Part shown: in pieces, positions 1,470-26,333 of the stretch
Position numbering within the stretch: the first letter of the stretch is position 1
Layout: each line of letters opens with the position of its first letter
Assembly (NCBI GenBank): GCA_902168085.1
Contig: CABHOP010000022.1
Coordinates: 62,001 to 126,000, forward strand
DNA from: an uncultured Bacteroides sp.
GTDB lineage: Bacteria > Bacteroidota > Bacteroidia > Chitinophagales > Chitinophagaceae
DNA length: 64,000 bases
Reading direction: 5' to 3'
Notes under the pieces: generated by a model
Told to the model about the DNA's origin: nothing
What the model saw: only the letters and a program-made list of their open reading frames with translations
The model's database searches: none
Program-made: the position numbers and the translations under genes

Positions 1470-3896
1470 TTAAAATGTCCAGTTCACATTCAGGCTGGGG
1501 AATACCGGTAATTGATAAACGCGAACGTTCTGGTTCCTGTCTATATAGAATATGTTGTTCCTGTCATACACATTGCTCACGCTCAATGTTGTTTCAAGGT
1601 TAGAGTATTTGGCCAGTTTAAATATCTTCTTCACTGATATATCCAAACGGTGATAATCTGAAAGACGGCCACCGTTTATAGAGGTAGCATACATCAGGCC
1701 GGGAGTACCATTCTGCTGGTTTACGTTGGTGCCACCGCCACCGGCTATGGGATTCAGCTTCTCGTAAAAACCTTGCGTTTGTGTGAATGGGAAAGCAGAG
1801 CCATAGTTGAACCTTGCAGATATTTCCCAATCCCTTTTCTTACCGGCAGTATAGGCTGCCAGGGCGTTCATGTTCACCCTGCGGTCGAACGGAGGTGCGT
1901 AGGTTTGCTTTTCAAGCTCATAATTGTACGGATAGATAATGGTGCCATCCGGTTGTTTAACTGGTGTAGAATGAAGCACGTTATCTTTCATTACGATTGT
2001 TTCATACTCTACTTTCTGGTAAGACACTACGCCCCACAGGTACCAGCGTTTTTTATTGTAGCGTGCAGAAAGGTCTATACCATAGGCCTGGCCACTACCT
2101 GCAGTAAAGTTGCCATCGCTGTTAGATACTTTCACACGGCTTAGCTCCATGTTCTGTGAAAAGTTCTTATACCATGGCTCCAGGTTAAACTCTACGTTCT
2201 GTACATCTACTTCTATCCCACCTAATACATGGTAGGCTGTTTGCAGGTTATTGGTCACTTCCTCATTGTCTGTGTTCTTAACCGTTTCGTCCGGGCTTAG
2301 TATAAAGCCGGTAAAGAAGTTTACGATATCCCTGTCGCTCTTGGTACTGATGATGTTCTGAGAATACATACCCGCCGCGGCTTTCAGGCGGACGGTACTG
2401 GTCATGTTATATTTCAGGCCCAGGCGCGGTTCCGGTGACAGCTTATTCAATGCTGCATAATATTGCACCCTCAGGCCCGGTTCAAATACCAGCTTCTCGC
2501 TGAAATTCTTACGATACATGGCATAAAGCGCAGCCAGTGTATGACGGCGGTCTAACGTCGTCAGGGTTCCCGACATTTCATTTTTATAATCCAGCGATGT
2601 ATGGAAGCCACTTACTTCCACACCATACTTCAGCTGGCTATAGCCCGGCAGGAAGTAAGTGAAGTCGATAGCACCTTCAAACCCGTCAATGCCGCTGGTA
2701 CGTGGTGCCGAATTAGCATCCTTAAAGTTGGTATAGTCTATCAGGTATTTTGAGTAAGCAAAGCGGCCGCTTATCAGCGATGAGCTACCGGCAGGCGTTA
2801 CTACGAAGGTGGTACCACCACCATATGCCTTCCAGTTGAAGGTTGCATCCTCGGTATGAGATACAGGGTTCAATATTTTGGCTTTATCGTCAAAACTAAA
2901 ACCGAATACATTCAGCTTACTACCGTTATCACCATTGAAGGTTATTTTACCATACAGGTCGGTAAAGGTATAAGGCAGGCCACTTTTGAAAGGCTCACCG
3001 AAACCACCATATAAAGATTTTGAAGTAGATGCCAGGTAGCTGTGTTTAGCCGTCAGCAGGAAAGTAGTAGATGACCCACCCTCGCGTTTTGCTTTTGCCA
3101 GCGGGCCTTCCAGCATCACACGCGCCATCAGTGGCGATACCGATACCTTACCTGACAAGCGGTTTTTGTTGCCGTCTTTGGTACGCACATCCAGTATGGC
3201 CGATGTACGATTGCCATATTGCGCATTGAAACCCGCGGTTTGTACTTCTACGTTACGGATAGCGTCTGTTTCAAATACAGAGAACAAGCCTATCGTATGG
3301 AAGGGGTTGTATATCGTTACACCATCCAGCAATATACCTGTTTGCGAAGGTGCACCACCACGTATATACAACTGCCCGCCCTGGTCGCCGGTAAATACTA
3401 CACCCGGCACTACCTGCAGGTATTGGGCTATATCCGCCTCGCCACCTGCGCTAGGCAGCAGCTTCATTTCGCGTGGGGTTATATTTATACTACCGGCATT
3501 TATCTGCGTTTGCTTTTCTGTTTTACGAGCCGATATTTCTACGGCTTTCAGTTCCTGGCTCTTCTGCCCCAGGAATAGCTTTCTAGTAATAACCTGCCCT
3601 GCCTTAACAGAGATGGCTACTTTAACACTATCGTATCCTATCAGGCTGGTGAAGAGTGTATAGTCACCCTCCGGTATCTGCGTGATGGAGAAATAACCAT
3701 TCACATCGGTCTGCACCCCTATTTTAGTTCCCAGCAGTATTACATTGGTATATATCACCGGCTCGCCCGATGCTTTGTCGTAAACGAAACCTTTTACGGC
3801 ACCTGTTTTGACGGTTTGGGCAATAGCGGTGGTACCGAAAAGTGCTAATAACAGCACCAGCCATAAGGTTTGCTTTTGGATAGAAGTGGTTTTCAT
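1470..3896 (-). CDS. TonB-dependent receptor with N-terminal carboxypeptidase-like (CarboxypepD_reg) domain
   Basis: Signal peptide MKTTSIQKQTLWLVLLLALFGTTAIAQ, KGFVYDKASGEPVIYTNVILLGTKIGVQTDVNGYFSI, plug domain GGQLYIRGGAPSQTGILLDGVTIYNPFH, beta-barrel C-terminus ending in F. Confidence 0.9.
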   Translation of the reverse strand: MKTTSIQKQTLWLVLLLALFGTTAIAQTVKTGAVKGFVYDKASGEPVIYTNVILLGTKIGVQTDVNGYFSITQIPEGDYTLFTSLIGYDSVKVAISVKAGQVITRKLFLGQKSQELKAVEISARKTEKQTQINAGSINITPREMKLLPSAGGEADIAQYLQVVPGVVFTGDQGGQLYIRGGAPSQTGILLDGVTIYNPFHTIGLFSVFETDAIRNVEVQTAGFNAQYGNRTSAILDVRTKDGNKNRLSGKVSVSPLMARVMLEGPLAKAKREGGSSTTFLLTAKHSYLASTSKSLYGGFGEPFKSGLPYTFTDLYGKITFNGDNGSKLNVFGFSFDDKAKILNPVSHTEDATFNWKAYGGGTTFVVTPAGSSSLISGRFAYSKYLIDYTNFKDANSAPRTSGIDGFEGAIDFTYFLPGYSQLKYGVEVSGFHTSLDYKNEMSGTLTTLDRRHTLAALYAMYRKNFSEKLVFEPGLRVQYYAALNKLSPEPRLGLKYNMTSTVRLKAAAGMYSQNIISTKSDRDIVNFFTGFILSPDETVKNTDNEEVTNNLQTAYHVLGGIEVDVQNVEFNLEPWYKNFSQNMELSRVKVSNSDGNFTAGSGQAYGIDLSARYNKKRWYLWGVVSYQKVEYETIVMKDNVLHSTPVKQPDGTIIYPYNYELEKQTYAPPFDRRVNMNALAAYTAGKKRDWEISARFNYGSAFPFTQTQGFYEKLNPIAGGGGTNVNQQNGTPGLMYATSINGGRLSDYHRLDISVKKIFKLAKYSNLETTLSVSNVYDRNNIFYIDRNQNVRVYQLPVFPSLNVNWTF

Positions 3897-12868: not shown

Positions 12869-15800
12869 ATGCAACGTTATACGTCCCTTTTACTAGCCCT
12901 GTTATTATTGTCATGCTCTATCGCACAAGCCCAAAATAAACAGCCCTACAGCCGTTTTCAGTATCATAAATACAAATGGCGAACCTTTCATACCAAAGCC
13001 TATCATATCTACTTCCCGACAGGCTATGACAGTCTTGCCTCTTTTACCGCAAGAGAGCTGCCGGATGCTATAAAGAAGGTAAAGCGCAACATGGGCACCA
13101 CACTGCTGAAAGAACCCAATATTATTATCTACCCATCTGTCGACCAGCTATATGGAAGCAATATAGGCTATAGCGAATCTGTAAACTATACTTTACCCAC
13201 ATTCGTAGCTAAAGGCAACCGCACAATCATAGCTTACGACGGCAACTACGAACATCTTAAACAACAGATCTATGAGTCTGTTGCAAGATCTATCTGGGAG
13301 GCATGGCTGAAGGAAGAAAACGACCTCGCAAAACAAGCGAACGACAAACCGGAAGATATACCCACCTGGTTCAAAGAAGGTGCTATCGCATATTTTGCCC
13401 ATGGTTGGGCCATTGAAGCAGAAGATAAACTGCATAGCAATTACCAACTTAATCCATATACCAACTGGCAACAGGTTGCAGCTACTCAATCTAAACTTGC
13501 AGGACAGGCATTTCTATATTTTTTTAGAAGATCAGTACTACCCACAAGCCCCCATGCAATTATTAGGACAGCTTCGTAAAAAGAAGAACTTGCAACGCGC
13601 CCAACGATTGCTCACTAAGAAACCACTCGATACCGTATTGGCAGAATGCAATCGCTTTTATCAGGCAAGATTCCAAGAGCAGTCTACACCTATACCGACA
13701 AGCACTGTAAGCCTAACCATTCCAAAGAAAAAAGGTGTATTAAAAGGGGTGAAAGCAAGCCCTGATGGCAAACAAGTAGCTTATACTGTTTACCGGAACC
13801 GCAAACGAACTGCTTATGTCTACAACAGTATTAGTAAAGAAACGAAGAAACTCACGAGTTATAACCTGCCGCCCTGGATCACAGATTACAGCAGGGACCT
13901 ATACCCTATCCTGCAATGGACCAATGATGGCAATGAGATTAATGTCATGTTACCTATAAAAGGTAAATTAACCCTTATCAGCTATAGCACTAACGGTCAG
14001 AAAACAGACCGGGTAGAAATAATTGGAACCGACGGCGTGAATCAAGTAGAGATCATCAAGGACTATCAATACCTAATGTCAGCTTATCGAAAAGGTCAAA
14101 GCGATATAGTGGAATACGATGGCCTCAAGGAGAAATATGTTCCTTACACCAATGATAATTACGACGATGCAACACCTGTGTGTAATAGCAATAATTCCAG
14201 CCAACTGTTTTTTATATCAGGACGAAAGGAGAAAGAACTCACAGCCGAACAAAAAAGTACTATTGGCTTTAAAGACACGACCATACAAAAGCAAGGCATA
14301 TTTACCGTAAAGGATAAAGCTATAACACTTGTGCTCACAGATAGCATCCCTTATATCCATTGGGATAAGCTGGTAGCATTACCACAAGGCCAGCTGCTCG
14401 CTACTCTTACTAAATACGGTGAGGAGCGCTTTGCATTTATTCCCAATCCTAATACGATTACACCTGCCATACAAACATTAGCCAGGTATCAACCTATACA
14501 ATACCTGACCGCTCAACAAACCATTAGCTACCACCGTCAGAAAGGTGATAGCATAGAAGTAGTATCAGAGCCGCTAAAGGCTTGGATAATCAGGAATAGC
14601 AATGATGATACCACAAGTGCATGGTTGGATGATTATAATAAGAAGGCTGCAGTAAGGGCAAAAGAAGATAGTATACTGAAAGCGGCAAGAGATGAATCCC
14701 CCTCTTTCCTGGAAGGTGTATTGATACCTAAAAATGCCAAGGAAGAGGCACAGAAAAGAGAAGACAGCATACAGAAAGCATTAACCTACAATCCTAAGCA
14801 AGTAAGGCCTTACATCCTACAACTGCATAGTGCTTACTTCTCGGCCAAAGTAAACAATGATTATTTCATCAACCGCTACCAGCCGTATAAAAACTACCAG
14901 GGGCAGTTTAAGTTCCCGGAATTAGGTGGTATGGCGCAAGGTGGCTTTAGCGATATATTGGAAAACCATCATGTAAACATCGCCTTTCGTCTGCCGGCAG
15001 GATCAGAAGGCAGTGATTTCTTTATCCGCTATGAGAATACAGCGAAGAAAATAGACTGGGGTATCAGTTACTTTCGGAAAGTAGAAAGCCTATCACCAGA
15101 CCCCAAACGCAGTTGGGTAGATGAGGAAGGTAAGCCTTATCCCAATAATGCTAAAGTCAAAACCCACTATGGTGAAGTAAGCGTACATCATCCGATTACC
15201 TACTACCTATCTGCCGGTTTCCAGGAAGCAGTTCGCTATGACAGAACGATATTCTTAGCTACTGATAAATATACTCTGCCCTTTAAAGACCTTAGTTCCA
15301 CCTGGTCGATCAGCACACTATCGCTTACCTATAACAGGCTAATGCCTACTTTACCGATGCTATACAAAGGTTTTAAAGCAAAAGGACTGATCGATGTATT
15401 TCAGCCGGTAGCAGGTAATGAAGGAACGGTGACTGGTAGTACCCTGCAATTACAGTATCACCAACCGTTGTATAAATACATCACATTAGCTACGCAACTA
15501 CAAACCGGCTACAGTGGGGGTAAAAGCAAAGTTTTATACAATACCGGCGGCATGGATAACAATATCACCGTGAGAACCGATAGCAATATTAACCCGGAGC
15601 AAACCACGCCCTATGCATTTCAAACGCTGATAACTCCATTGAGAGGATACTTGCAAAACACGCTGCAAGGCAATCAATACCTTGTTTTCAATACCGATGT
15701 TTATTTCCCGCTATTTCAAACACTGATCCCAATAGAAACGCCATTGCAATCTATCAACCAATTACAATTAGGATTATTCAGCGACATAGCGACTGTCAAA

Positions 15801-15968
15801 GAAACGTGGAACAAGACAAAGCCACAGAACGACTGGGCATGGTCCTACGGTATCAGCGCACGCACTAACCTTGCAGGCTATCCGATCCGTTTTGATATTA
15901 CTTGGCCGGGAGCATTGAATAGAAAACCTGTTTGGTATTTATCGTTCGTTCAGCTCCTTGAAAGATAA
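12869..15968 (+). pseudogene. TolB-like beta-propeller / outer-membrane-barrel protein split by a frameshift in a T7 run (13519-13525)
   Basis: ORFs 12869..13579 and 13380..15968 join seamlessly if one T is removed: LAGQAFLYFLEDQYYPQAPMQLLGQLRKKK. N-terminal peptidase-MA-like segment DIPTWFKEGAIAYFAHGW. Confidence 0.65.
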
Positions 15969-16164: not shown

Positions 16165-16371
16165 TATGCATAATGTAGTTATGTGTAGTGCAAGCATAAT
16201 ATCAATGTGTTATGCCAGGTATTCATTTTGAGCGTTTTGTCATAGTAAATTTCGATAGCAGTCGCTCAAAAATGTTGCCGACATTCGTATCAGTTCTACT
16301 TTCCTGAGATAGGAATACACTTTGTCAAATAAAGTTGAAAACCATATATTTATGGTCAATATTCCCACGCC

Positions 16372-19167
16372 TTGAGCACAGAGAAACATACCAGGAAACA
16401 GATAATTGATGCTAGACTATTTAAAGCTGGATGGGATGTTTCTGATCGTGCGCAAGTTGTTGAGGAATATGATATTGAAGTAGGTTTACCCGATAGCGTA
16501 TCTCAACCACAAACAAAATATCAAGGACGCCAGTTTAGCGATTATACTTTACTGGGCAAAGACGGAAAAATCATTGCGGTAATTGAAGCTAAAAAGACTT
16601 CTGTAGATGCTGCATTAGGACGAGAACAAGCCAAACAATATTGCTACCACATACAGCAAAAACAGGGAGTATTACCATTCTGTTTTTATACAAATGGAAA
16701 TGATATTTTCTTTTGGGATTTAGAAAACTACCCTCCACGTAAAGTGCATGGTTTCCCTACCAGAGATGATTTAGAACGGTGTGAATATATTCGAAAGGCA
16801 AGAAAATCTTTAGCCGGTGAACTAATCAATACAAAGATTGCTGGCCGAGAGTATCAAATAGCGTCTATAAGAAGTGTAATGGAAGCTGTGGAGAAAAGGA
16901 AACGAAAGTTTCTTTTGGTGATGGCTACAGGTACAGGTAAAACCAGAACTTGTATAGGATTGGTAGACGCCTTGATGCGTGCCGGTTGGGCAGAAAGAGT
17001 GCTGTTTCTGGTTGACCGCATTGCATTGCAATCACAGACACTGGATGCTTTTAAAGAACATTTACCAAATGAACCAAGATGGCCCAAACAAGGCGAGAAA
17101 ACAATTGCCAGAGATAGGCGTATATATGTTTCTACTTACCCAACGATGCTGAATATTATTAGAGAGCAGAATAATGGGTTATCGCCTCATTTCTTTGACT
17201 TGATAATTGTGGATGAAAGCCATCGAAGTATCTATAATACATACGGTGAAATACTTGACTATTTTGGTGCCATTACTTTAGGGTTAACGGCTACCCCAAC
17301 TGATGTTATAGACCATAATACTTTCCAGTTGTTTGAGTGTGAAGATGGAATTCCAACATTTGCCTATTCATACGAAGAGGCCGTAACCCACGTGCCACCT
17401 TATTTGTCAGATTTTCAAGTGATGAAAATCAAAACAAAATTTCTGGAACAAGGCATTAATAAACGCACTATCAGCCTCGAAGACCAAAAGAAATTATTGC
17501 ATGAGGGAAAGGATGTTGATGAAATAAATTATGAAGGCTCAGAAATAGAGAAGACTGTTGTCAATAAGGGTACCAATGCACTTATTGTCAGAGAGTTTAT
17601 GGAAGAAAGCATCAAAGATGCTAACGGTGTATTGCCTGGCAAAACTATCTTTTTCTGTATTAGCAAGGCGCACGCTAGGCGGATAGAAGATGTTTTCGAT
17701 GCACTTTATCCTGAACATAAAGGAGAACTGGCTAAAGTAATTGTTAGTGAAGACCCTCGGGTACACGGCAAGGGCGGATTGCTGGATCAGTTTACCAACA
17801 AGGACATGCCTCGTATTGCTATCAGTGTAGATATGCTGGATACTGGTATAGACGTAAGAGAGGTGCAGAATCTTGTTTTTGCCAAACAGGTATTTTCTTA
17901 TACCAAGTTCTGGCAAATGATAGGAAGGGGAACAAGGTTGCTGGAAAAAGATAAAATAAAGCCTTGGTGTACAACCAAAGATGGCTTTCTGATATTAGAC
18001 TGTTGGGACAATTTCGAATATTTCAAGCTTAATCCTAAAGGCAAAGAATTAAAGCCACAAATACCGTTACCTGTCAGGTTGTTTGGTGTTAGGCTTGATA
18101 AGATTGAAAAAGCAATTGAGTTAAAAAATGATGCAATTACCAGAAAAGAAGCGACAAATCTACAGGCTCAGATTGCACAATTGCCGCAAAATTCTGTTGT
18201 TGTAATGGATGCCAAATCTGATTTGCAGCGATTGGATGACCCAGGGTTTTGGTTGGCATTAAATGATGATAATATAGCGTTTTTGCGAAATGTGGTAAAA
18301 CCCTTGATGCGAACCATTGTTGGGGTAGACTATAAAGCCATGCGATTTGAGAAGGATATTGTAGAAGTTTCGTTGGCACATCTCAGTAATGACAAAGACA
18401 AGTTTGAAGCTTTAAAAGACAGTATTGTTGAAGAAATAGGAGAATTACCGCTGTCTGTGAATATAGTGGCGAATGAGAGAGACATCATACAGCGAAGCCA
18501 GACCAATCATTTTTGGTCTGCCATTTCAGAAGAAAGTATGGATGAGCTTATTGAGAAGCTGGCACCTCTAATGAAGTTTATAGACTCGTTTGTTGCGCCA
18601 CTGAGCCCTGAAAAGCTAAACCTGAAAGATATTACCATTGCAAAAGAATATGTAGACTTTGGTCCGCAGCACGAACGGCTGACGGTAGCCAACTACAGAC
18701 AACTGGTGGAACATAAGATAAATGAAATGGTACTGTCCAGCCCTATATTGCAAAAAGTAAAACAGGGCGGTGTAATTACCGAACAAGAAGCCGAAATGCT
18801 GGCAGAGGAATTGCACCAACAACACCCCCACATAACGATAGATCTGCTGCGCAGAGTATACGATAACAGAAAGGCGCAGCTCATTGCCTTTGTAAAACAT
18901 GTATTAGGTCTCGAAGTACTGGAAACATTTGCAGAAACGGTATCAAAAGCTTTCGATAATTTTATAGCCGAACATAGCTATCTGTCTGTAAGGCAACTTG
19001 AGTTTCTGAGCCTGCTCAGAAATTTCTTGTTAGAAAAAGGTTCAGCTACCAAAAAAGACCTTATTAATGCACCTTTTACACGTATTCATCCTGATGGGGT
19101 ACGTGGTGTATTCTCTCAAAAAGAAATTGAAGAAATAATAAGGTTTATTGAAAACATTGCAGCGTAA
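16372..19167 (+). CDS. hsdR: Type I restriction endonuclease subunit R (EcoEI-type), TTG start
   Basis: LLVMATGTGKTRTCIGLVDAL (Walker A), IIVDESHRS (DEAD-like), LTATPTD, MIGRGTR; EcoEI_R C-terminal-like region. Confidence 0.92.
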   Translation: MSTEKHTRKQIIDARLFKAGWDVSDRAQVVEEYDIEVGLPDSVSQPQTKYQGRQFSDYTLLGKDGKIIAVIEAKKTSVDAALGREQAKQYCYHIQQKQGVLPFCFYTNGNDIFFWDLENYPPRKVHGFPTRDDLERCEYIRKARKSLAGELINTKIAGREYQIASIRSVMEAVEKRKRKFLLVMATGTGKTRTCIGLVDALMRAGWAERVLFLVDRIALQSQTLDAFKEHLPNEPRWPKQGEKTIARDRRIYVSTYPTMLNIIREQNNGLSPHFFDLIIVDESHRSIYNTYGEILDYFGAITLGLTATPTDVIDHNTFQLFECEDGIPTFAYSYEEAVTHVPPYLSDFQVMKIKTKFLEQGINKRTISLEDQKKLLHEGKDVDEINYEGSEIEKTVVNKGTNALIVREFMEESIKDANGVLPGKTIFFCISKAHARRIEDVFDALYPEHKGELAKVIVSEDPRVHGKGGLLDQFTNKDMPRIAISVDMLDTGIDVREVQNLVFAKQVFSYTKFWQMIGRGTRLLEKDKIKPWCTTKDGFLILDCWDNFEYFKLNPKGKELKPQIPLPVRLFGVRLDKIEKAIELKNDAITRKEATNLQAQIAQLPQNSVVVMDAKSDLQRLDDPGFWLALNDDNIAFLRNVVKPLMRTIVGVDYKAMRFEKDIVEVSLAHLSNDKDKFEALKDSIVEEIGELPLSVNIVANERDIIQRSQTNHFWSAISEESMDELIEKLAPLMKFIDSFVAPLSPEKLNLKDITIAKEYVDFGPQHERLTVANYRQLVEHKINEMVLSSPILQKVKQGGVITEQEAEMLAEELHQQHPHITIDLLRRVYDNRKAQLIAFVKHVLGLEVLETFAETVSKAFDNFIAEHSYLSVRQLEFLSLLRNFLLEKGSATKKDLINAPFTRIHPDGVRGVFSQKEIEEIIRFIENIAA

Positions 19168-19168
19168 T

Positions 19169-19549
19169 ATGCTAAAAGAAATACGTAGTCAACTTATTGA
19201 GTTAGCGAGGATGAATGGTACGTGGAGTTATTCAATGCTAAATGACCAGCTACAACTTGGTCTTAATTTTGACGATATCTCTCATAGAAAGTTAGTTGGC
19301 GATTGGCTCGAAGAAATTTCACTGTATGAGCTTGAAAAAGAACGTCCGTTAATTAGTTCTATGATTGTTCATAAAAGTGGAAAAAAAGAGCAAGGTAATG
19401 GATATTACAAATTGTGCGAAAAACTATATATAAGACCGTGGTTGGAGTTGAAGGAAGACAGGCAATTTGAAAAAGATAGAATAAAAGAATGTTATTCCTT
19501 CTGGAAGAACAATGATAATTATAAGAAATACAAAAACGATTTTAAATAA
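19169..19549 (+). CDS. Hypothetical protein of about 126 aa between hsdR and hsdM
   Basis: In-operon ORF, start adjacent to hsdR stop, stop adjacent to hsdM start. Confidence 0.7.
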   Translation: MLKEIRSQLIELARMNGTWSYSMLNDQLQLGLNFDDISHRKLVGDWLEEISLYELEKERPLISSMIVHKSGKKEQGNGYYKLCEKLYIRPWLELKEDRQFEKDRIKECYSFWKNNDNYKKYKNDFK

Positions 19550-21124
19550 ATGCTTACATCTTCCCTAAAAAGTAAAGTATCATCTCTGTGGGATAAATTC
19601 TGGAGTGGCGGTATATCCAACCCCCTCAATGCCATAGAGCAGATAACCTACCTGCTGTTTATGAAACAGCTGGATGAGAACGATAAAACAAAAGAAAAGA
19701 ATGCTGCTTTTCTGGAAGAGCGCTTTGAATCTGTTTTTGACGGAACGTTTCTGCCACCGGGTGCTAAAGAAGGCAGCGAGCTGGATAAGCAAACACTACG
19801 CTGGAGCTATTTTAAACGTATGCCTGCAGAGGAAATGCTGGTATTTGTGCAGTCTTCGGTATTCCCGTTCATCCGCCAGCTGGATGGTGATGAAAACTCT
19901 TTCTTTACCAAACACATGGCCAATGCGGTATTTCTGATACCTAAGCCCAGCCTGCTAACAGAAGCCATAAAAACTATAGATGAGATATATGACGAGCTGA
20001 AGACCGAAAACAGGTTTATAGATGCGCAGGGTGATTTTTATGAATACCTCCTCAGCCAGCTGAGTCAGGCGGGTAAAAACGGACAGTTCCGCACGCCTAC
20101 GCATATTATAGAAATGATAACCGAGCTGGTGCAACCCAAGCTGGGCGATAAGATAGCAGACCCGGCCTGTGGCTCAGCAGGCTTTCTGCTGGCAGCATAC
20201 AAATACCTGATTACAGAATTTACCAGCCCGCAGTACCGGGGAAAAGACGAGAATGGTTTTATACGCGGTACGGTAGCCGATAGGCTGGTGAGCGAAGATG
20301 CTAAGAAGATACTGAACGAACAGTCTTTTTACGGCTTTGATATAGACCCTACCATGATACGCATAGGGCTGATGAACCTGATGATGCACGGCATAGCCAA
20401 GCCGAGGATAGACTATATGGATACCCTGAGCAAAAGCTATAATGAAGAGAATGTGTATGACATTGTAATGGCCAACCCGCCTTTTACCGGCAGTGTAGAC
20501 AAGGGCGACCTGAACCCCAACTTCAGCATCAGCACTACCAAGAGCGAGCTGCTGTTTGTAGAGCGCATATACGGCATGCTGCGGATAGGTGGCACGGCTG
20601 GGGTGGTAGTGCCGCAGGGTGTACTGTTTGGCAGTGCAAAGGCTTTTGCCGAACTAAGAAAGATATTGATAGATAAGTGCGAACTGAAGGCGGTGATAAA
20701 TATGCCGAGTGGTGTGTTTAAACCCTATGCAGGTGTAGCAACTGCCATACTGGTATTTACCAAAGGGGGCGAAACTACCAATGTATGGTACTACGATATG
20801 GAAAGCGACGGACGCAGCCTGGATGATAAACGCAACGAGCTGCGCCTGCCCGATGGAGAACGCGACTACGGAGACCTGCACAAAATAATAGCAGCCTACC
20901 ATAGCCGCGATGTGATAAACGAAACAGACCGCAAAGCCAAACACTTTTTTGTGCCTAGGGCAGAAATAGCTAATAATGATTATGACCTGAGCATAAACAA
21001 GTATAAAGAAGAAGTGTATGAAGAGGTGGTTTATGAAAGTCCTAAAGTTATCATGCAAAGGCTAAAAGAAATTGAAGGACACATTAATACTGGAATATTT
21101 GAACTTGATGAAATAGTAAAATGA
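19550..21124 (+). CDS. hsdM: Type I R-M N6-adenine methyltransferase subunit M
   Basis: FRTPTHIIEMITELVQPKLGDKIADPACGSAGFL (motif I) and MANPPFTGSVD (motif IV). Confidence 0.95.
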   Translation: MLTSSLKSKVSSLWDKFWSGGISNPLNAIEQITYLLFMKQLDENDKTKEKNAAFLEERFESVFDGTFLPPGAKEGSELDKQTLRWSYFKRMPAEEMLVFVQSSVFPFIRQLDGDENSFFTKHMANAVFLIPKPSLLTEAIKTIDEIYDELKTENRFIDAQGDFYEYLLSQLSQAGKNGQFRTPTHIIEMITELVQPKLGDKIADPACGSAGFLLAAYKYLITEFTSPQYRGKDENGFIRGTVADRLVSEDAKKILNEQSFYGFDIDPTMIRIGLMNLMMHGIAKPRIDYMDTLSKSYNEENVYDIVMANPPFTGSVDKGDLNPNFSISTTKSELLFVERIYGMLRIGGTAGVVVPQGVLFGSAKAFAELRKILIDKCELKAVINMPSGVFKPYAGVATAILVFTKGGETTNVWYYDMESDGRSLDDKRNELRLPDGERDYGDLHKIIAAYHSRDVINETDRKAKHFFVPRAEIANNDYDLSINKYKEEVYEEVVYESPKVIMQRLKEIEGHINTGIFELDEIVK

Positions 21125-22902
21125 GGTTAGAAAGATTAGATAAAATTGCTGAAATAATTGCTGGACAATCTCCTCCATCAGAAACCTATAATAAAGAAGG
21201 TATAGGACTGCCATTTTTTCAAGGTAAAGCTGATTATGGTGAAATGTATCCCAAGGTTAGGTATTGGTGTAGCATACCAACAAAACTTTCGTATCCTCAT
21301 GATATATTAATATCTGTTAGGGCGCCAGTAGGGCCGGTTAATATTAATAATGTTAAAGCATGTATTGGGCGAGGTTTAAGTGCAATACGTCCTATGTCTG
21401 AGAATCAGACTTTGTATATATATTACTATTTAAAAGCAATCGAAAGCGACATTGCACGACTTGGCGTTGGTTCAACTTTTACTGCTATTACACAAAAAGA
21501 TTTGTCAGGAATAAAGATACCAATACCTGAAGATGTTAATGACCAAAAACGCATATCCACAATACTTAGCAAAGCTGAAAAGCTGATAGCACAACGCAAG
21601 GAAACCATAAAGCTGCTGGATGAGTTTTTGAAATCTGTGTTTCTGGATATGTTTGGCGACCCTGTGAGAAATGAGAAGGGATGGGAGAAATATAATGGAG
21701 AGCAATATAGTTTAAAAATATCAGTTGGTGTTGTTATCAAACCAGCTTCATATTATGTAGATAAAGGGGTTATTGCCTTAAGGTCATTGAACATAAAGCC
21801 GAATAAAATTCTTTTGAACGATATCGTATATTTTTCGGAAGAGGCTCATTTAAATGTATTATCCAAGTCAAGATTAAAAGAAGGAGATGTTGTAATTGTT
21901 AGAACAGGAGCAACCGGCACTGCTGCAGTAGTAACTAAAGAACTAAATGATGTTAACTGTATTGACTTAATAATTGTAAGGCCAGATATAACAATAGTTA
22001 ATCCATTATACTTATCATGGTTCTTTAATTCCGATAGGGGTAAGCAAATTGTGTTTTCTAAGGAAGTTGGTGGAATACAAAAGCATTTTAACATTGGCGA
22101 AATAAAGAAGTTAGCAATACCAATTCCCTATATCGGATTGCAAAACAAATTCGCTTCAATTGTAGAAAAAGCAGAAATTCTTAAACAACAGTACAATTCC
22201 AGCCTGCAAGAGTTGAAGAATCTGTATGGCTCGCTCAGCCAGCGTGCATTCAAGGGCGAGCTAGACCTGAGTAAAGTACCCATAGAAGAAGAGCCCAACA
22301 ATTTCTCTGGCCCCGCCCCCGAAGAAGATAAAAGATACGGAAACCCTTTTGAGGATATGGAATTGCCGAAAGAGGGATTGATTGGCAGGGATGAAATAGA
22401 AAAATTGTTAGGACGAGGGCAGGAGGAAATACAAGAATCTGTCAAAGGGAGTTTGGCACCGATTGAAAAAGTTGAAAAGTCCGACCAGAAATATGATGTC
22501 TTACCTGAAAAAACATATTCTTATGTTCCGAACAATGATTGGGATATATATAATGATTTAGAGCTTGCCAATATTGTAAAAACAAAATTTAGTGGACTAG
22601 AATTTAACGCTGAGATGTTAATTGATTATTTGACTAATCATCAAAGACTGAGCATTAACTATTTTAATTCAGAGGAACTTAAGAATGAGAAATTAACTAA
22701 AAGTAAGCGAGATTTTAAAAGTTGGTTATTTGATTGTATTAGTAATAAAAATGCAGAACTGAAACTTGAACAGTTTTATCATGACGAATACAGGTCAGAA
22801 AAGCAGTTGTTACTTCCATCGGATTATGAGGAAAAAAGAAGCCAGCAGAAGCAAAATGATGGAAGTGAGTTTTCAGGAATTTATTTTAGAATAGTACCAT
22901 GA
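21121..22902 (+). CDS. hsdS: Type I R-M specificity subunit S with about 180-aa C-terminal extension
   Basis: Two TRD repeats (KDLSGIKIPIPEDVNDQKRISTILSKAEKLIAQRKETIKLLDEFLKSVFLDMFGDP ... LAIPIPYIGLQNKFASIVEKAEILKQQYNSSLQELKNLYGSLSQRAFKGELDLSK); ATGA overlaps on both sides. Confidence 0.93.
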   Translation: MRLERLDKIAEIIAGQSPPSETYNKEGIGLPFFQGKADYGEMYPKVRYWCSIPTKLSYPHDILISVRAPVGPVNINNVKACIGRGLSAIRPMSENQTLYIYYYLKAIESDIARLGVGSTFTAITQKDLSGIKIPIPEDVNDQKRISTILSKAEKLIAQRKETIKLLDEFLKSVFLDMFGDPVRNEKGWEKYNGEQYSLKISVGVVIKPASYYVDKGVIALRSLNIKPNKILLNDIVYFSEEAHLNVLSKSRLKEGDVVIVRTGATGTAAVVTKELNDVNCIDLIIVRPDITIVNPLYLSWFFNSDRGKQIVFSKEVGGIQKHFNIGEIKKLAIPIPYIGLQNKFASIVEKAEILKQQYNSSLQELKNLYGSLSQRAFKGELDLSKVPIEEEPNNFSGPAPEEDKRYGNPFEDMELPKEGLIGRDEIEKLLGRGQEEIQESVKGSLAPIEKVEKSDQKYDVLPEKTYSYVPNNDWDIYNDLELANIVKTKFSGLEFNAEMLIDYLTNHQRLSINYFNSEELKNEKLTKSKRDFKSWLFDCISNKNAELKLEQFYHDEYRSEKQLLLPSDYEEKRSQQKQNDGSEFSGIYFRIVP

Positions 22903-24539
22903 AACTATTATCACTAAAAGTATTAGGGAATGATTTCAGAAGCATCAATGCTGGTAAGAAGTATGAATTTGATTTTGGAGAAGTAGCAGATAGGTTGTCG
23001 CCAAAATGTTTTGTGGGTTTAAATGGTAGTGGTAAGTCGAATCTTTTGGAGTTATTAGCCGAGTTGTTCTTCTACTTAGATGGGATGCATCTTAAATTTA
23101 AAAGTAAAGCCTTTGATGCTAAAGCACAATTTGGATTCGAAATTGAATATCTGCTTCCATTTACATATAATATTCCTGGAATAAAATTTGACGGAAAATT
23201 CTCGTTTGGTGATAAATATGTGCAGGTAAGAGTAGCCAAGCCTGTAGGGGAGGCGCCTTGCTATCATGTTAAACCATACGGGCGAAGTAGGTATATTAAG
23301 GTAGATGAGAATACACAATTGTTATTGCCTAAAAGGGTAATCGCATATACTTCAGGGGGGAATGAGCTGCTTAGTAATGCATTTTATAAAATGCGTTATC
23401 ATTATTTCAACGAGTACGAAAAAATGAAAGATGACGGAGTAGAATATGCGCTGGATGATAGTAGAATGTACTTTCTGGATAATAACACCAATGCATTTAT
23501 CAGCATTGCCAATCTCTTGTTAGGCGAAGATGATAAACTTGGACATATTGAAAAACTCTCAGGTTTACGTGATTTGCGTTCATTTAGAATCACCATCAGA
23601 TATAGAAATTATGCAAGAAATGAAGTGAAGTTCCCGAAAAGATCCCTAATCCCTATAGACAGACTAAAGCAATGTGCTACATCTTGGTATTTAAAAGGTG
23701 AGGGTATAAACCGAGTACTAACGATGGATTATTGGGTTGATAATGCAACAAAAGAAGCATTTAAAAATACATTTACTACACCATTTGAATTGTTTAAAGC
23801 ATTCTACGAATTAGATATGCTTAACGTGAATATGGTTCCTGTTGCTACCCGTGAATTAGCATTAAATCCGCCAAAGTGGTTGAATTTATCAGATGAAATA
23901 CCATCTTCTGATCCATCAAAACGTGTTTTTCGAATAGATAAGATTAATGTGCTAAAGAAAAATTCCAGAAAAGAACTTAAGTATAAAAGTTTGTCAGATG
24001 GAGAGCACCAATTTTTGCAGGTAGTAGGAGCAGTTATGATGATGGAAGAAGATAATAATGTTTTCTTATTGGACGAACCTGAAACTCATTATAATCCTCT
24101 CTGGCGTTCTCGATTGATTAGTACATTAAATAAAGTAAGTGTGAAAAATTTTGATGAGGTAGGTAAAGGGATACGAAGTCAGGAGATAATTATAACTACG
24201 CATTCACCATTTTTGTTGTCAGACTGTAATAGGAGTGATGTTTATATAGCAACTCGAAATAGAGGTAAGCTTACAATAGAACACCCTAACTTTGAAACGT
24301 TTGGAGCATCAGTTGGTCAGTTGATGGATTGTTTGTTTATGGAAGAACCTCAAAGTATTGCACAAATGGCCAAAGACGAGCTTGATAGAATACGAAAGGG
24401 CATTGCTAAGGCAAAAACAGTCAAAGCGCTTGAGAATGCTGTGAATAGTTTATCTAATCTCGGAAACTCATTGGAAAAGTTAGACGTGATGTATTTGTTG
24501 AGGACAAAAGATGTAAAACTCAGAAAAAACAATGTCTAA
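22899..24539 (+). CDS. Restriction-system-associated AAA/ABC-type ATPase, PtuA/OLD-like
   Basis: Walker A CFVGLNGSGKSNLLE, signature KYKSLSDGEHQFLQVVG, Walker B NVFLLDEPETHYNPLW, H-loop IIITTHSPFLLSD; start overlaps hsdS stop. Confidence 0.88.
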   Translation: MKLLSLKVLGNDFRSINAGKKYEFDFGEVADRLSPKCFVGLNGSGKSNLLELLAELFFYLDGMHLKFKSKAFDAKAQFGFEIEYLLPFTYNIPGIKFDGKFSFGDKYVQVRVAKPVGEAPCYHVKPYGRSRYIKVDENTQLLLPKRVIAYTSGGNELLSNAFYKMRYHYFNEYEKMKDDGVEYALDDSRMYFLDNNTNAFISIANLLLGEDDKLGHIEKLSGLRDLRSFRITIRYRNYARNEVKFPKRSLIPIDRLKQCATSWYLKGEGINRVLTMDYWVDNATKEAFKNTFTTPFELFKAFYELDMLNVNMVPVATRELALNPPKWLNLSDEIPSSDPSKRVFRIDKINVLKKNSRKELKYKSLSDGEHQFLQVVGAVMMMEEDNNVFLLDEPETHYNPLWRSRLISTLNKVSVKNFDEVGKGIRSQEIIITTHSPFLLSDCNRSDVYIATRNRGKLTIEHPNFETFGASVGQLMDCLFMEEPQSIAQMAKDELDRIRKGIAKAKTVKALENAVNSLSNLGNSLEKLDVMYLLRTKDVKLRKNNV

Positions 24540-24555
24540 CTAAAAGAGGTAGGCT

Positions 24556-25624
24556 ATGATAAAACCGTATGTTTACATCACGCATTCCATTCAGGGGTTT
24601 CATGAAGATATCATGGCATTTATGCTCAATGTTCTGCGTACTAATGTAGCAGCATATGATAGGCAAACTTTACCCGGAAAACTAAAAGATAATATTCAAA
24701 AGAAAAGGAACGAAATTTGAAAAATATCTTAGTGAAATAGTAGTCGAATTCAATAAACTAAGTATTGAACAAAGGAGTGCTTTATCGGATGTCGTCGAGA
24801 ACAATAATAGGGTTGAAGATTTATGCTCGAATAGAAAACATGCCACATTATATACATCCGTTGTACCAGCATCCCTCTCAAGTTTTTTGAACAACTTTTA
24901 TTGTTTTTTGTGGGATGAGGCATATGACTATGATGGCGTTGTTGAGCAATATGGTACATTGAAAGACCATCATGAAAAATTTAAAGCAGGGCAAAAAATA
25001 AAAATATGTCCAATGTGTGGCATATCCCGATTAAAACCGTCTGGATTAAAGGCTCGAGATGCATATGATCATTACTTAGCTAAATCGCTATACCCTTTTA
25101 ATCCCATCAATACGTATAATCTTGTGCCTACTTGTCATGAATGCAATAGTGATTTTAAGGGAGCAGACGATATTTTATTAAAAGCTGATGGTACAAGAAG
25201 TGCAGCTTTTTATCCATATTCCACCGAAACGTATAATCTCGTTTTACGTTATGAAATACGACATAGGTCAAATAAAGCATTGTTTATTCATAATAAAGAC
25301 TGGAAGCCAAAAATTCTTTGCAATGAAAATGACGATGAAAGAGTTCGTGCTTGGACAAAGACATATGGTATTGAGCATAGGTATCATGAATATACAAATG
25401 ACTCAGAACTTGTTTGGCTCAAAGCAATAGTCAAGAACTACAAAATTGCAAAACGTCGTCTTACACCATTTGACCAATTTAAACAAGATTATATGGACCA
25501 ATACGATTCAATCCTATCAGGTCCAATGGATATATTAGAGAAAGCCTACGCTGAATACATTTTGTCTCTAGATGAGATACAAGAAACATTAGACTCTTTT
25601 TTAGATAATGGAGTGCCTGAATAA
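24556..25624 (+). pseudogene. HNH nuclease, PtuB-like, frameshifted near 24712
   Basis: MIKPYVYITHSIQGFHEDIMAFMLN...KDNIQKKRNEI* in frame 1, continued in frame 2 as KFEKYLSEIVVEFNKLS...; HNH core CPMCG(x)n DAYDHYLAKSLYPFNPINTYNLVPTCHECNSDFKG. Removing one G near 24712 restores one ORF. Confidence 0.75.
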
Positions 25625-25695: not shown

Positions 25696-25709
25696 TTGTG
25701 TGGTTTTAG

Positions 25710-25793
25710 TGCCCAGAACAGGAATCGAACCTGCACTCCATTGCTGAAACCAGATTTTGAGTCTAGCGCGTCTACCAATTCCGCCATCTGGGC
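25710..25793 (-). tRNA. tRNA-Leu (anticodon CAA)
   Basis: GCCCAGATGGCGGAATTGGTAGACGCGCTAGACTCAAAATCTGG...GTGCAGGTTCGATTCCTGTTCTGGGCA; acceptor stem GCCCAGA/TTCTGGGC, anticodon loop CTCAAAA. Confidence 0.93.
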
Positions 25794-25802
25794 GTTTTGT
25801 CA

Positions 25803-26333
25803 TCAATGGGTTGCAAATGTATTTATTCTTTGCTGAATACGCAACAAGTATTTTCGACGAAAGTAGTAGTCTTTTATCTGCAATAGCAATTCTTTAGATG
25901 TATCTCCGCCTTCAAAGCGTTGCAGCAATGGTGCTGCTGCTGCAGCCCACGCCTGTTGCTGGTTTTGCATCATTTGTATGGCCTGTTGCTGCATGCTTTC
26001 ATTTCCCGGTTCCATCTCGTATTCACTTACTGCTTCATTCAGTTCCATCATTTCCATCAGGAAGCCGGGCGGCAGGTTATACTTCTCTTCTTCCTCCAGC
26101 AGCCCGTTCAGCTTCAGTATATAAGCCATAGTAGCATCCGCATTGTTCAGCACTTTGTAAGCATCATTATTCAATGCCGCCATGCGCAGTGCAGTAGCCC
26201 TTTCTTCTGCATCTGCCATTGTATATCTGTCGGGATGATATTGGCGACTCAGTTCGTAATATTTCTTTTTTACGGCAGCTGCATCTGGCGTAAAACTCAC
26301 AGGTATATCGTATAGTTCAAAATAGTTATTCAT
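25803..26333 (-). CDS. hscB: Fe-S cluster co-chaperone HscB (J-domain)
   Basis: NYFELYDIPVSFTPDAAAVKKKYYELSRQYHPDRYT with HPD motif; HSCB C-terminal domain. Confidence 0.88.
   Translation of the reverse strand: MNNYFELYDIPVSFTPDAAAVKKKYYELSRQYHPDRYTMADAEERATALRMAALNNDAYKVLNNADATMAYILKLNGLLEEEEKYNLPPGFLMEMMELNEAVSEYEMEPGNESMQQQAIQMMQNQQQAWAAAAAPLLQRFEGGDTSKELLLQIKDYYFRRKYLLRIQQRINTFATH

What the first reader, a model, noticed from the sequence alone, without database searches (positions are those of the whole stretch)
16372..25624. Composite defence operon: type I R-M fused in-operon with a Septu-like ATPase + HNH module
hsdR, a ~126-aa ORF, hsdM, hsdS, an ABC-type ATPase and an HNH protein run in one direction. 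hsdM/hsdS and hsdS/ATPase overlap by ATGA, so the ATPase is translationally coupled to the specificity subunit. The ATPase has Walker A GLNGSGKSN, LSDGEHQ and LLDEPETHYNP; the HNH protein has CPMCG...DHYLAKSLYPFNPINTYNLVPTCHECN, resembling PtuA/PtuB (Septu). 'Restriction-system-associated' ATPases are known, but how R-M and a Septu-like pair cooperate is not well described to my knowledge.
Basis: partly seen in the sequence, partly recalled or inferred. Interest (0 to 1): 0.75.

Follow-up and report, generated by a model that had tools for sequence, protein, structure and literature searches.

The report
Type I R-M with Septu-like nuclease module
A bacterial DNA restriction operon carries a built-in second weapon, an ATPase and an HNH nuclease resembling the Septu defence pair; across many phyla this pair always sits beside the DNA-recognition subunit, which carries a special extra domain, and it often remains when the usual cutting subunit is missing.

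Summary
The operon is real: hsdR, a 126-aa ORF, hsdM, hsdS, a PtuA-like ATPase and an HNH gene, with ATGA overlaps at hsdM/hsdS and hsdS/ATPase. The ATPase belongs to NCBIfam TIGR04435 "restriction system-associated AAA family ATPase" (416 bits, cut-off 300), so the association is known by name. Correction: the HNH gene starts at 24556, not 24887, and is split by a frameshift in this assembly; relatives are intact (about 340-390 aa).

New here: (1) in 85 of 85 surveyed loci from over ten phyla, hsdS sits directly upstream of the ATPase, and 81 have this HNH family next. (2) These HsdS proteins carry a C-terminal domain on a linker; held-out profiles find it in 36-38 of 41 ATPase-linked HsdS and in 0 of 38 control HsdS. 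(3) hsdR is optional: missing near 30 of 76 assessable loci against 0 of 38 control hsdMS loci, lost repeatedly on the ATPase tree, and absent genome-wide in at least five cases. HsdM, ATPase and HNH motifs stay intact in nearly all hsdR-less loci.

Best reading: HsdM-HsdS addresses a Septu-like effector through the HsdS tail. Trigger and target are untested. The pair is a distant PtuA/PtuB relative, not shown to be Septu.

The parts
16372..19167 (+). hsdR, 931 aa, EcoAI/EcoE-type restriction subunit (HSDR_N, ResIII/SNF2 helicase, EcoEI_R_C); TTG start
   Evidence: PADLOC REase_I 510 bits
19169..19549 (+). small ORF, about 126 aa, unknown; only one other surveyed locus (L038) has it, also between hsdR and hsdM
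   Evidence: no family
19550..21124 (+). hsdM, 524 aa, N6-adenine methyltransferase with motifs DPACGSAGF and NPPF; GC3 0.50, host-like, unlike the genes after it
21121..22293 (+). hsdS residues 1-391: two target recognition domains and conserved coiled coils
   Evidence: Methylase_S x2; fold matches HsdS, E 3e-22
22294..22530 (+). hsdS residues 392-470: predicted mostly disordered linker (pLDDT mostly < 50)
22531..22902 (+). hsdS residues 471-593: folded C-terminal domain, the tail specific to ATPase-linked HsdS; helices plus two strands, winged-helix-like by its predicted secondary structure
22899..24539 (+). PtuA-like ATPase, 546 aa, TIGR04435; start overlaps hsdS stop by ATGA
24556..24720 (+). 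N-terminal part of the HNH gene in frame 1 (54 aa, then TGA)
24686..25624 (+). remaining part of the HNH gene in frame 2 (312 aa open), PtuB-like; zinc/HNH core 25007-25147 intact
24686..24717 (+). stretch in which both frames are open and the single-base frameshift must lie

Best explanation
The operon encodes a type I R-M enzyme with a second effector built onto its recognition module. HsdM-HsdS finds and methylates its sites; the HsdS tail, a small folded domain on a flexible linker, docks the PtuA-like ATPase and its PtuB-like HNH nuclease. When HsdMS meets an invader (unmethylated sites, or a complex blocked by a phage anti-restriction protein), the ATPase switches state and the HNH nuclease cuts nucleic acid, either invader DNA or a tRNA as in PtuAB systems. 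HsdR is a parallel effector that can be dispensed with. Shown here: gene set, invariant hsdS-ATPase block with HNH in nearly all loci, ATPase-specific HsdS tail, repeated hsdR absence with the rest kept, PtuA kinship. Inferred: physical docking by the tail, the trigger and the target. In this assembly the HNH frame is broken, so activity in this strain is not assured.
For: 85/85 loci have hsdS directly upstream of the ATPase, 58 with exactly the -4 ATGA overlap; HNH of this family in 81/85. The block stays together even where hsdM has moved downstream (L066, L093, L094, L106, L109, L114). HsdS tail: 36-38 of 41 held-out ATPase-linked HsdS, 0 of 38 control HsdS; median HsdS 524 aa against 424.5 aa in controls. 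Two loci whose HNH is replaced by another HNH type (L075, L086) lack the tail. hsdR absent in 30 of 76 assessable loci against 0 of 38 hsdMS controls, Fisher p 6e-7; large unassigned ORFs in hsdR-less loci are not HsdR and only one hsdR remnant was found (L071). The label needs at least 15 changes on the ATPase tree. Genomes of L045, L069, L077, L080, L092 hold no HsdR anywhere while the positive control does. ATPase and HNH distances correlate at 0.81-0.89; the tail follows ATPase/HNH (0.34-0.37) a little better than HsdM (0.29) or HsdR (0.20). ATPase profile finds retron I-A and Septu PtuA in PDB. PtuAB is a nuclease effector acting on tRNA-Tyr or DNA (PMC11555353, PMC13096335).
Against: No direct evidence of docking, trigger or substrate. 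L044 has the tail with the other HNH type, so tail and HNH type do not track perfectly. The tail is short and divergent, so its tree correlation is weak. Loci were the best 80 of 510 relatives, and controls were Bacteroidota only, chosen from strong HsdM_N hits. Most hsdR-less genomes hold HsdR of other systems that could act in trans. The window's own HNH gene is frameshifted.
Confidence: 0.55

Rival explanations
1. R-M guardian, as PrrC in EcoprrI: the ATPase-HNH pair is held silent inside the type I complex and released when a phage protein inhibits the R-M enzyme, then cuts a host tRNA and aborts infection.
For: PrrC is an ABC-type ATPase nuclease embedded in a type I operon and sequestered in the complex (PMC3874165; PMC12707154); PtuAB of retron-Eco7 and Septu EcB88 cleave tRNA-Tyr. 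Translational coupling to hsdS and an HsdS-specific tail fit tethering.
Against: A guard of the complete R-M enzyme should not outlive hsdR, yet hsdR is missing in 30 of 76 loci with the rest kept. A guard of HsdMS alone remains possible.
Confidence: 0.27
2. Independent Septu-like system that merely travels with R-M genes in a defence island.
For: Septu is a stand-alone two-gene system; defence genes cluster (general knowledge; PADLOC PtuA match).
Against: Adjacency to hsdS, not to R-M in general, in 85/85 loci; ATGA coupling in 58; HsdS tail only in ATPase-linked HsdS.
Confidence: 0.07
3. Regulatory or assembly factor: the ATPase-HNH pair tunes HsdS function or DNA modification and is not an immune effector.
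For: The HsdS-specific link; ATPases can act as regulators.
Against: HNH catalytic residues (C, C, DH, N, CN) are invariant in the aligned relatives and intact in nearly all hsdR-less loci; PtuA/PtuB kinship points to an effector.
Confidence: 0.08
4. In this genome (a question separate from how the family works) the module is dead: the HNH frameshift is real and the operon works as plain type I R-M.
For: The frame is broken at 24686-24717.
Against: A second single-base indel 11 kb upstream breaks an unrelated gene that is whole in relatives, which suggests sequencing error; ATPase and hsdS frames are intact.
Confidence: 0.3

Closest known systems
NCBIfam TIGR04435, restriction system-associated AAA family ATPase
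   Same: The window ATPase is a member (416 bits, cut-off 300)
   Different: The family is a hypothetical equivalog; no paper in the held library names it. HNH partner, HsdS tail and hsdR-less loci are described here
Septu (PtuA/PtuB)
   Same: ATPase with PtuA profile match plus adjacent HNH nuclease gene; weakly PtuB-like predicted fold
   Different: HNH sequence is far from PtuB (best PtuB model 23 bits) and is longer at its N-terminus; always coupled to hsdS
Retron I-A (Ec78/Eco7) PtuAB effector
   Same: Among the closest solved relatives of the ATPase; an addressing or inhibiting partner plus PtuAB is the same logic
   Different: No reverse transcriptase among the operon's genes; HsdMS would take the place of the retron RT-ncRNA
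EcoprrI/PrrC
   Same: ATPase-nuclease gene embedded in a type I R-M operon
   Different: PrrC is one protein with its own tRNA-Lys nuclease; here ATPase and HNH are two genes and hsdR is dispensable
MADS (methylation-associated defence system)
   Same: HsdMS-like modification module with an ATPase; weak hits of hsdM and hsdS to MAD2/MAD5
   Different: All hits far below curated cut-offs (114 of 720, 63 of 400 bits)
PADLOC candidates PDC-M62A/B
   Same: ATPase + HNH pair; the HNH's best PADLOC hit is PDC-M62B (59 bits)
   Different: Only partial-length matches; candidate systems without tested mechanism to my knowledge

Membership tests
TIGR04435 restriction system-associated ATPase | Score above curated cut-off over full length | tested here: met
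   416.4 bits, cut-off 300, residues 1-532
TIGR04435 restriction system-associated ATPase | Located in a type I R-M operon | tested here: met
   85/85 loci next to hsdS
Type I R-M | HsdR, HsdM and HsdS with intact domains | tested here: met
   motifs read directly
Type I R-M | Sequence-specific methylation and restriction | not testable with these tools
   needs methylome and restriction assay
Septu | PtuA-type ATPase | tested here: met
   PADLOC PtuA1 178 bits over nearly full length; PDB PtuA 8ee4 2e-9, retron PtuA 7e-14
Septu | PtuB-type HNH protein | tested here: inconclusive
   PtuB models 23 bits; no sensible PDB sequence hit; Foldseek top 4 all PtuB but E 1.3-3.6, TM 0.46-0.49 of target
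Septu | ptuA-ptuB as a self-sufficient two-gene operon | tested here: not met
   never found without hsdS in 85 loci
Septu | tRNA-Tyr or DNA cleavage upon infection | not testable with these tools
   needs infection experiments
Retron I-A | Reverse transcriptase and msr-msd | tested here: not met
   no RT domain among the operon proteins; ncRNA not searched
PrrC/EcoprrI | Single PrrC protein with its own anticodon nuclease domain | tested here: not met
   ATPase matches AAA_21 and TIGR04435, no PrrC family hit in NCBIfam, Pfam or the shown PADLOC hits
MADS | MAD2/MAD5 at curated cut-off | tested here: not met
   114 of 720 and 63 of 400 bits

The most novel reading that the evidence does not exclude
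HsdM, HsdS with a dedicated C-terminal adaptor domain, a PtuA-like ATPase and a PtuB-like HNH nuclease form a self-sufficient restriction or abortive system without HsdR: type I specificity subunits address an effector other than the HsdR translocase, and the window is a form that keeps both effectors.
Probability: 0.5. Interest if true: 0.8.

Novelty: new variant of a known kind. Interest (0 to 1): 0.62.

Why it matters
It would mean that the type I recognition core (HsdMS) is a reusable targeting device for effectors other than HsdR, in the way retrons address PtuAB. It gives a directly testable architecture (HsdS tail as adaptor) and a set of natural hsdR-less operons in which the effector can be studied alone. 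It also warns that hsdMS operons annotated as orphan or incomplete may be complete defence systems.

Tried and rejected
Septu by chance next to R-M: rejected by 85/85 hsdS adjacency and the HsdS-specific tail. Undetected HsdR of another type in hsdR-less loci: the ten large ORFs scanned against Pfam include TonB receptor, FtsK, peptidase, SecA, SIR2, Schlafen helicase, integrase and two without any family, none of them HsdR; tblastn found one remnant only, in L071. HsdR elsewhere in the genome: true for most hsdR-less genomes, but not for at least five. Naming the HNH by PDB sequence search: no sensible hit. Phage origin of the ATPase: only weak ATPase-core matches. Integrase or att site for the operon: none in it; a 15-bp near repeat (16229-16243 / 25789-25803) flanks it but is within the range of chance repeats. 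Papers on TIGR04435: none in the held library.
Full report
Observation. The window carries, all on the + strand, hsdR (16372-19167), a small ORF (19169-19549), hsdM (19550-21124), hsdS (21121-22902), an ATPase (22899-24539) and an HNH gene. Families: hsdR has HSDR_N, helicase and EcoEI_R_C domains; hsdM has HsdM_N and N6_Mtase; hsdS has two specificity domains. The ATPase is NCBIfam TIGR04435, restriction system-associated AAA family ATPase, at 416 bits against a cut-off of 300, and matches PADLOC PtuA1 over its length at 178 bits.

Correction. The HNH ORF given at 24887-25624 is only the 3' part of a gene. An ORF of 54 aa from 24556, in another frame, aligns with the N-termini of the relatives' HNH proteins (MIKPYVYITHSIQGFHEDI...), and the HNH frame is open from 24686. 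The two frames overlap at 24686-24717, so one single-base indel separates them. The neighbouring gene upstream is split in the same manner at a run of seven T near 13520-13530, and is one frame of 1032-1041 aa in two genomes of the same genus. Sequencing error and true mutation cannot be told apart here. The zinc and HNH residues themselves are intact.

Survey. ATPase relatives were gathered from whole genomes and plasmids and eleven, the window's included, were aligned (A1). A scan of 84,980 species genomes with A1 gave 80 loci with flanks, and with the window and four plasmid loci 85 were examined with iterated profiles. All 85 have hsdS immediately upstream of the ATPase, 58 with exactly the 4-base overlap. 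79 have hsdM in the held DNA (most of the rest are cut by contig ends; L055 has an integrase in its place), and 81 have an HNH of the same family. Three others (L044, L075, L086) have a different HNH protein of 285-291 aa with a HIEHFRPK-type motif, and L115 has none. In L066, L093, L094, L106, L109 and L114 hsdM lies downstream, yet hsdS-ATPase-HNH remain contiguous. The loci span Bacteroidota, Pseudomonadota, Cyanobacteriota, Planctomycetota, Chloroflexota, Myxococcota, Verrucomicrobiota, Nitrospirota, Campylobacterota, Thermodesulfobacteriota, Chlorobiota and a Bacillota plasmid. In the phylum sample, 8 of 396 genomes, the window's own included, have an ATPase over the family cut-off.

HsdS tail. 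ATPase-linked HsdS proteins extend well past the usual end of HsdS. The last 60-95 residues share the pattern F-x-F-D-E-L ... Y-D-x-x-K-x-x-x-F-x-L-L ... L-x-Q-x-F-D. Profiles built from half of the loci find 36-38 of the 41 held out and none of 38 control HsdS at E < 0.01. L075 and L086, which have the other HNH type, lack the tail; L044, also with the other HNH, keeps it. In L106 the tail is a separate small ORF overlapping the ATPase start. The predicted model of the window HsdS has an ordinary HsdS part (residues 1-391; PDB matches are HsdS), a mostly disordered linker (392-470) and a confident folded end domain (471-593) of helices and two strands. I read it as winged-helix-like, from secondary structure only.

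hsdR is optional. Thirty of 76 loci with enough flank have no hsdR next to the block. This count moves L065, which holds only a distant hsdR fragment on the other strand, to the hsdR-less side, and includes L055 (no hsdM) and L115 (no HNH). As a control, 40 HsdM loci without this ATPase were fetched from 90 genomes of the phylum: all 38 that have hsdS also have hsdR within the fetched stretch; Fisher p = 6e-7. On the ATPase tree, hsdR presence needs at least 15-18 changes, so loss or gain has happened many times. Big ORFs scanned in the hsdR-less loci are not HsdR, and only L071 keeps a remnant, 43 residues of the hsdR C-terminus. Walker A, Walker B and HNH motifs are intact in nearly all hsdR-less loci, and the methyltransferase NPPF motif in all 29 with hsdM. 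Whole-genome searches found no HsdR in the genomes of L045, L069, L077, L080 and L092 (a sixth, L070, has one ambiguous 1010-aa helicase; L055's genome has none either but its locus lacks hsdM), while L038's genome, the positive control, gave 560 bits. Most other hsdR-less genomes do hold HsdR of other systems, so action in trans is not excluded there.

What the pair is. The ATPase profile finds in PDB an AAA family ATPase (9n69), retron I-A PtuA and Septu PtuA (1e-14 to 2e-9). The HNH has no sensible sequence hit in PDB; its confident model, made for the intact relative of L040 (pLDDT 92.5), gives retron PtuB as the four best Foldseek hits, although with E above 1. I take it as a distant PtuB relative with an added N-terminal helical part. 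PtuAB of retron-Eco7 and of a Septu system cleave tRNA-Tyr in its variable loop, and another Septu PtuAB is reported to cut DNA (PMC11555353, PMC13096335). ATPase and HNH have strongly correlated distances (0.81-0.89) and the tail follows them slightly better than HsdM or HsdR, a weak result because the tail is short.

Mechanism. The anatomy points to HsdM-HsdS as the sensor, the HsdS tail as adaptor, and ATPase-HNH as effector, parallel to HsdR where HsdR exists. The alternative with most weight is a guardian of the PrrC kind (PMC3874165, PMC12707154). hsdR-less loci speak against guarding of the full R-M enzyme but not against guarding of HsdMS. Trigger and substrate are open.

Known and new. 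That this ATPase goes with restriction systems is in the NCBI family name. I found no paper in the held library that names it, and my searches turned up none that describes its HNH partner with HsdS, the tail, or hsdR-free operons of this kind; preprints and most subscription papers are not in that library. I therefore rate it a new variant of a known kind. Limits: loci are the best 80 of 510 candidates, controls are Bacteroidota only and drawn from strong HsdM_N hits, and no interaction or activity was tested.

Noticed in passing
window 12869-15968: Gene upstream of the operon is split into two frames (236 aa and 862 aa ORFs) at a T7 run near 13520-13530; two congeners have one frame of 1032-1041 aa.
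   Followed up: yes
window 19169-19549: ORF of about 126 aa between hsdR and hsdM, no known family; the only other surveyed copy is in L038 (Flavobacterium hungaricum), same position.
   Followed up: partly
window 19550-25624: Mosaic composition: hsdM GC3 0.50 like the host, hsdS-ATPase-HNH GC3 0.26-0.31, which suggests hsdS-ATPase-HNH moved as one cassette.
   Followed up: partly
window 25709-25793 and 16229-16243: tRNA-Leu (caa) at the right end of the operon; a 15-bp near repeat (14/15) lies at 16229-16243 and 25789-25803, the latter at the tRNA 5' end. Not beyond chance among the repeats found.
   Followed up: partly
L044, L075, L086: Same ATPase family followed by a different HNH protein (HIEHFRPK type, 285-291 aa): the nuclease partner is exchangeable.
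   Followed up: partly
L106 about 3034-3272: HsdS tail domain encoded as its own small ORF, overlapping the ATPase start.
   Followed up: no
L033 6396-7319: Sphingobium plasmid copy has a GIY-YIG nuclease gene inserted between hsdM and hsdS of the same operon.
   Followed up: no
L055 7204-8376: Tyrosine integrase stands where hsdM would be, upstream of hsdS-ATPase-HNH.
   Followed up: no
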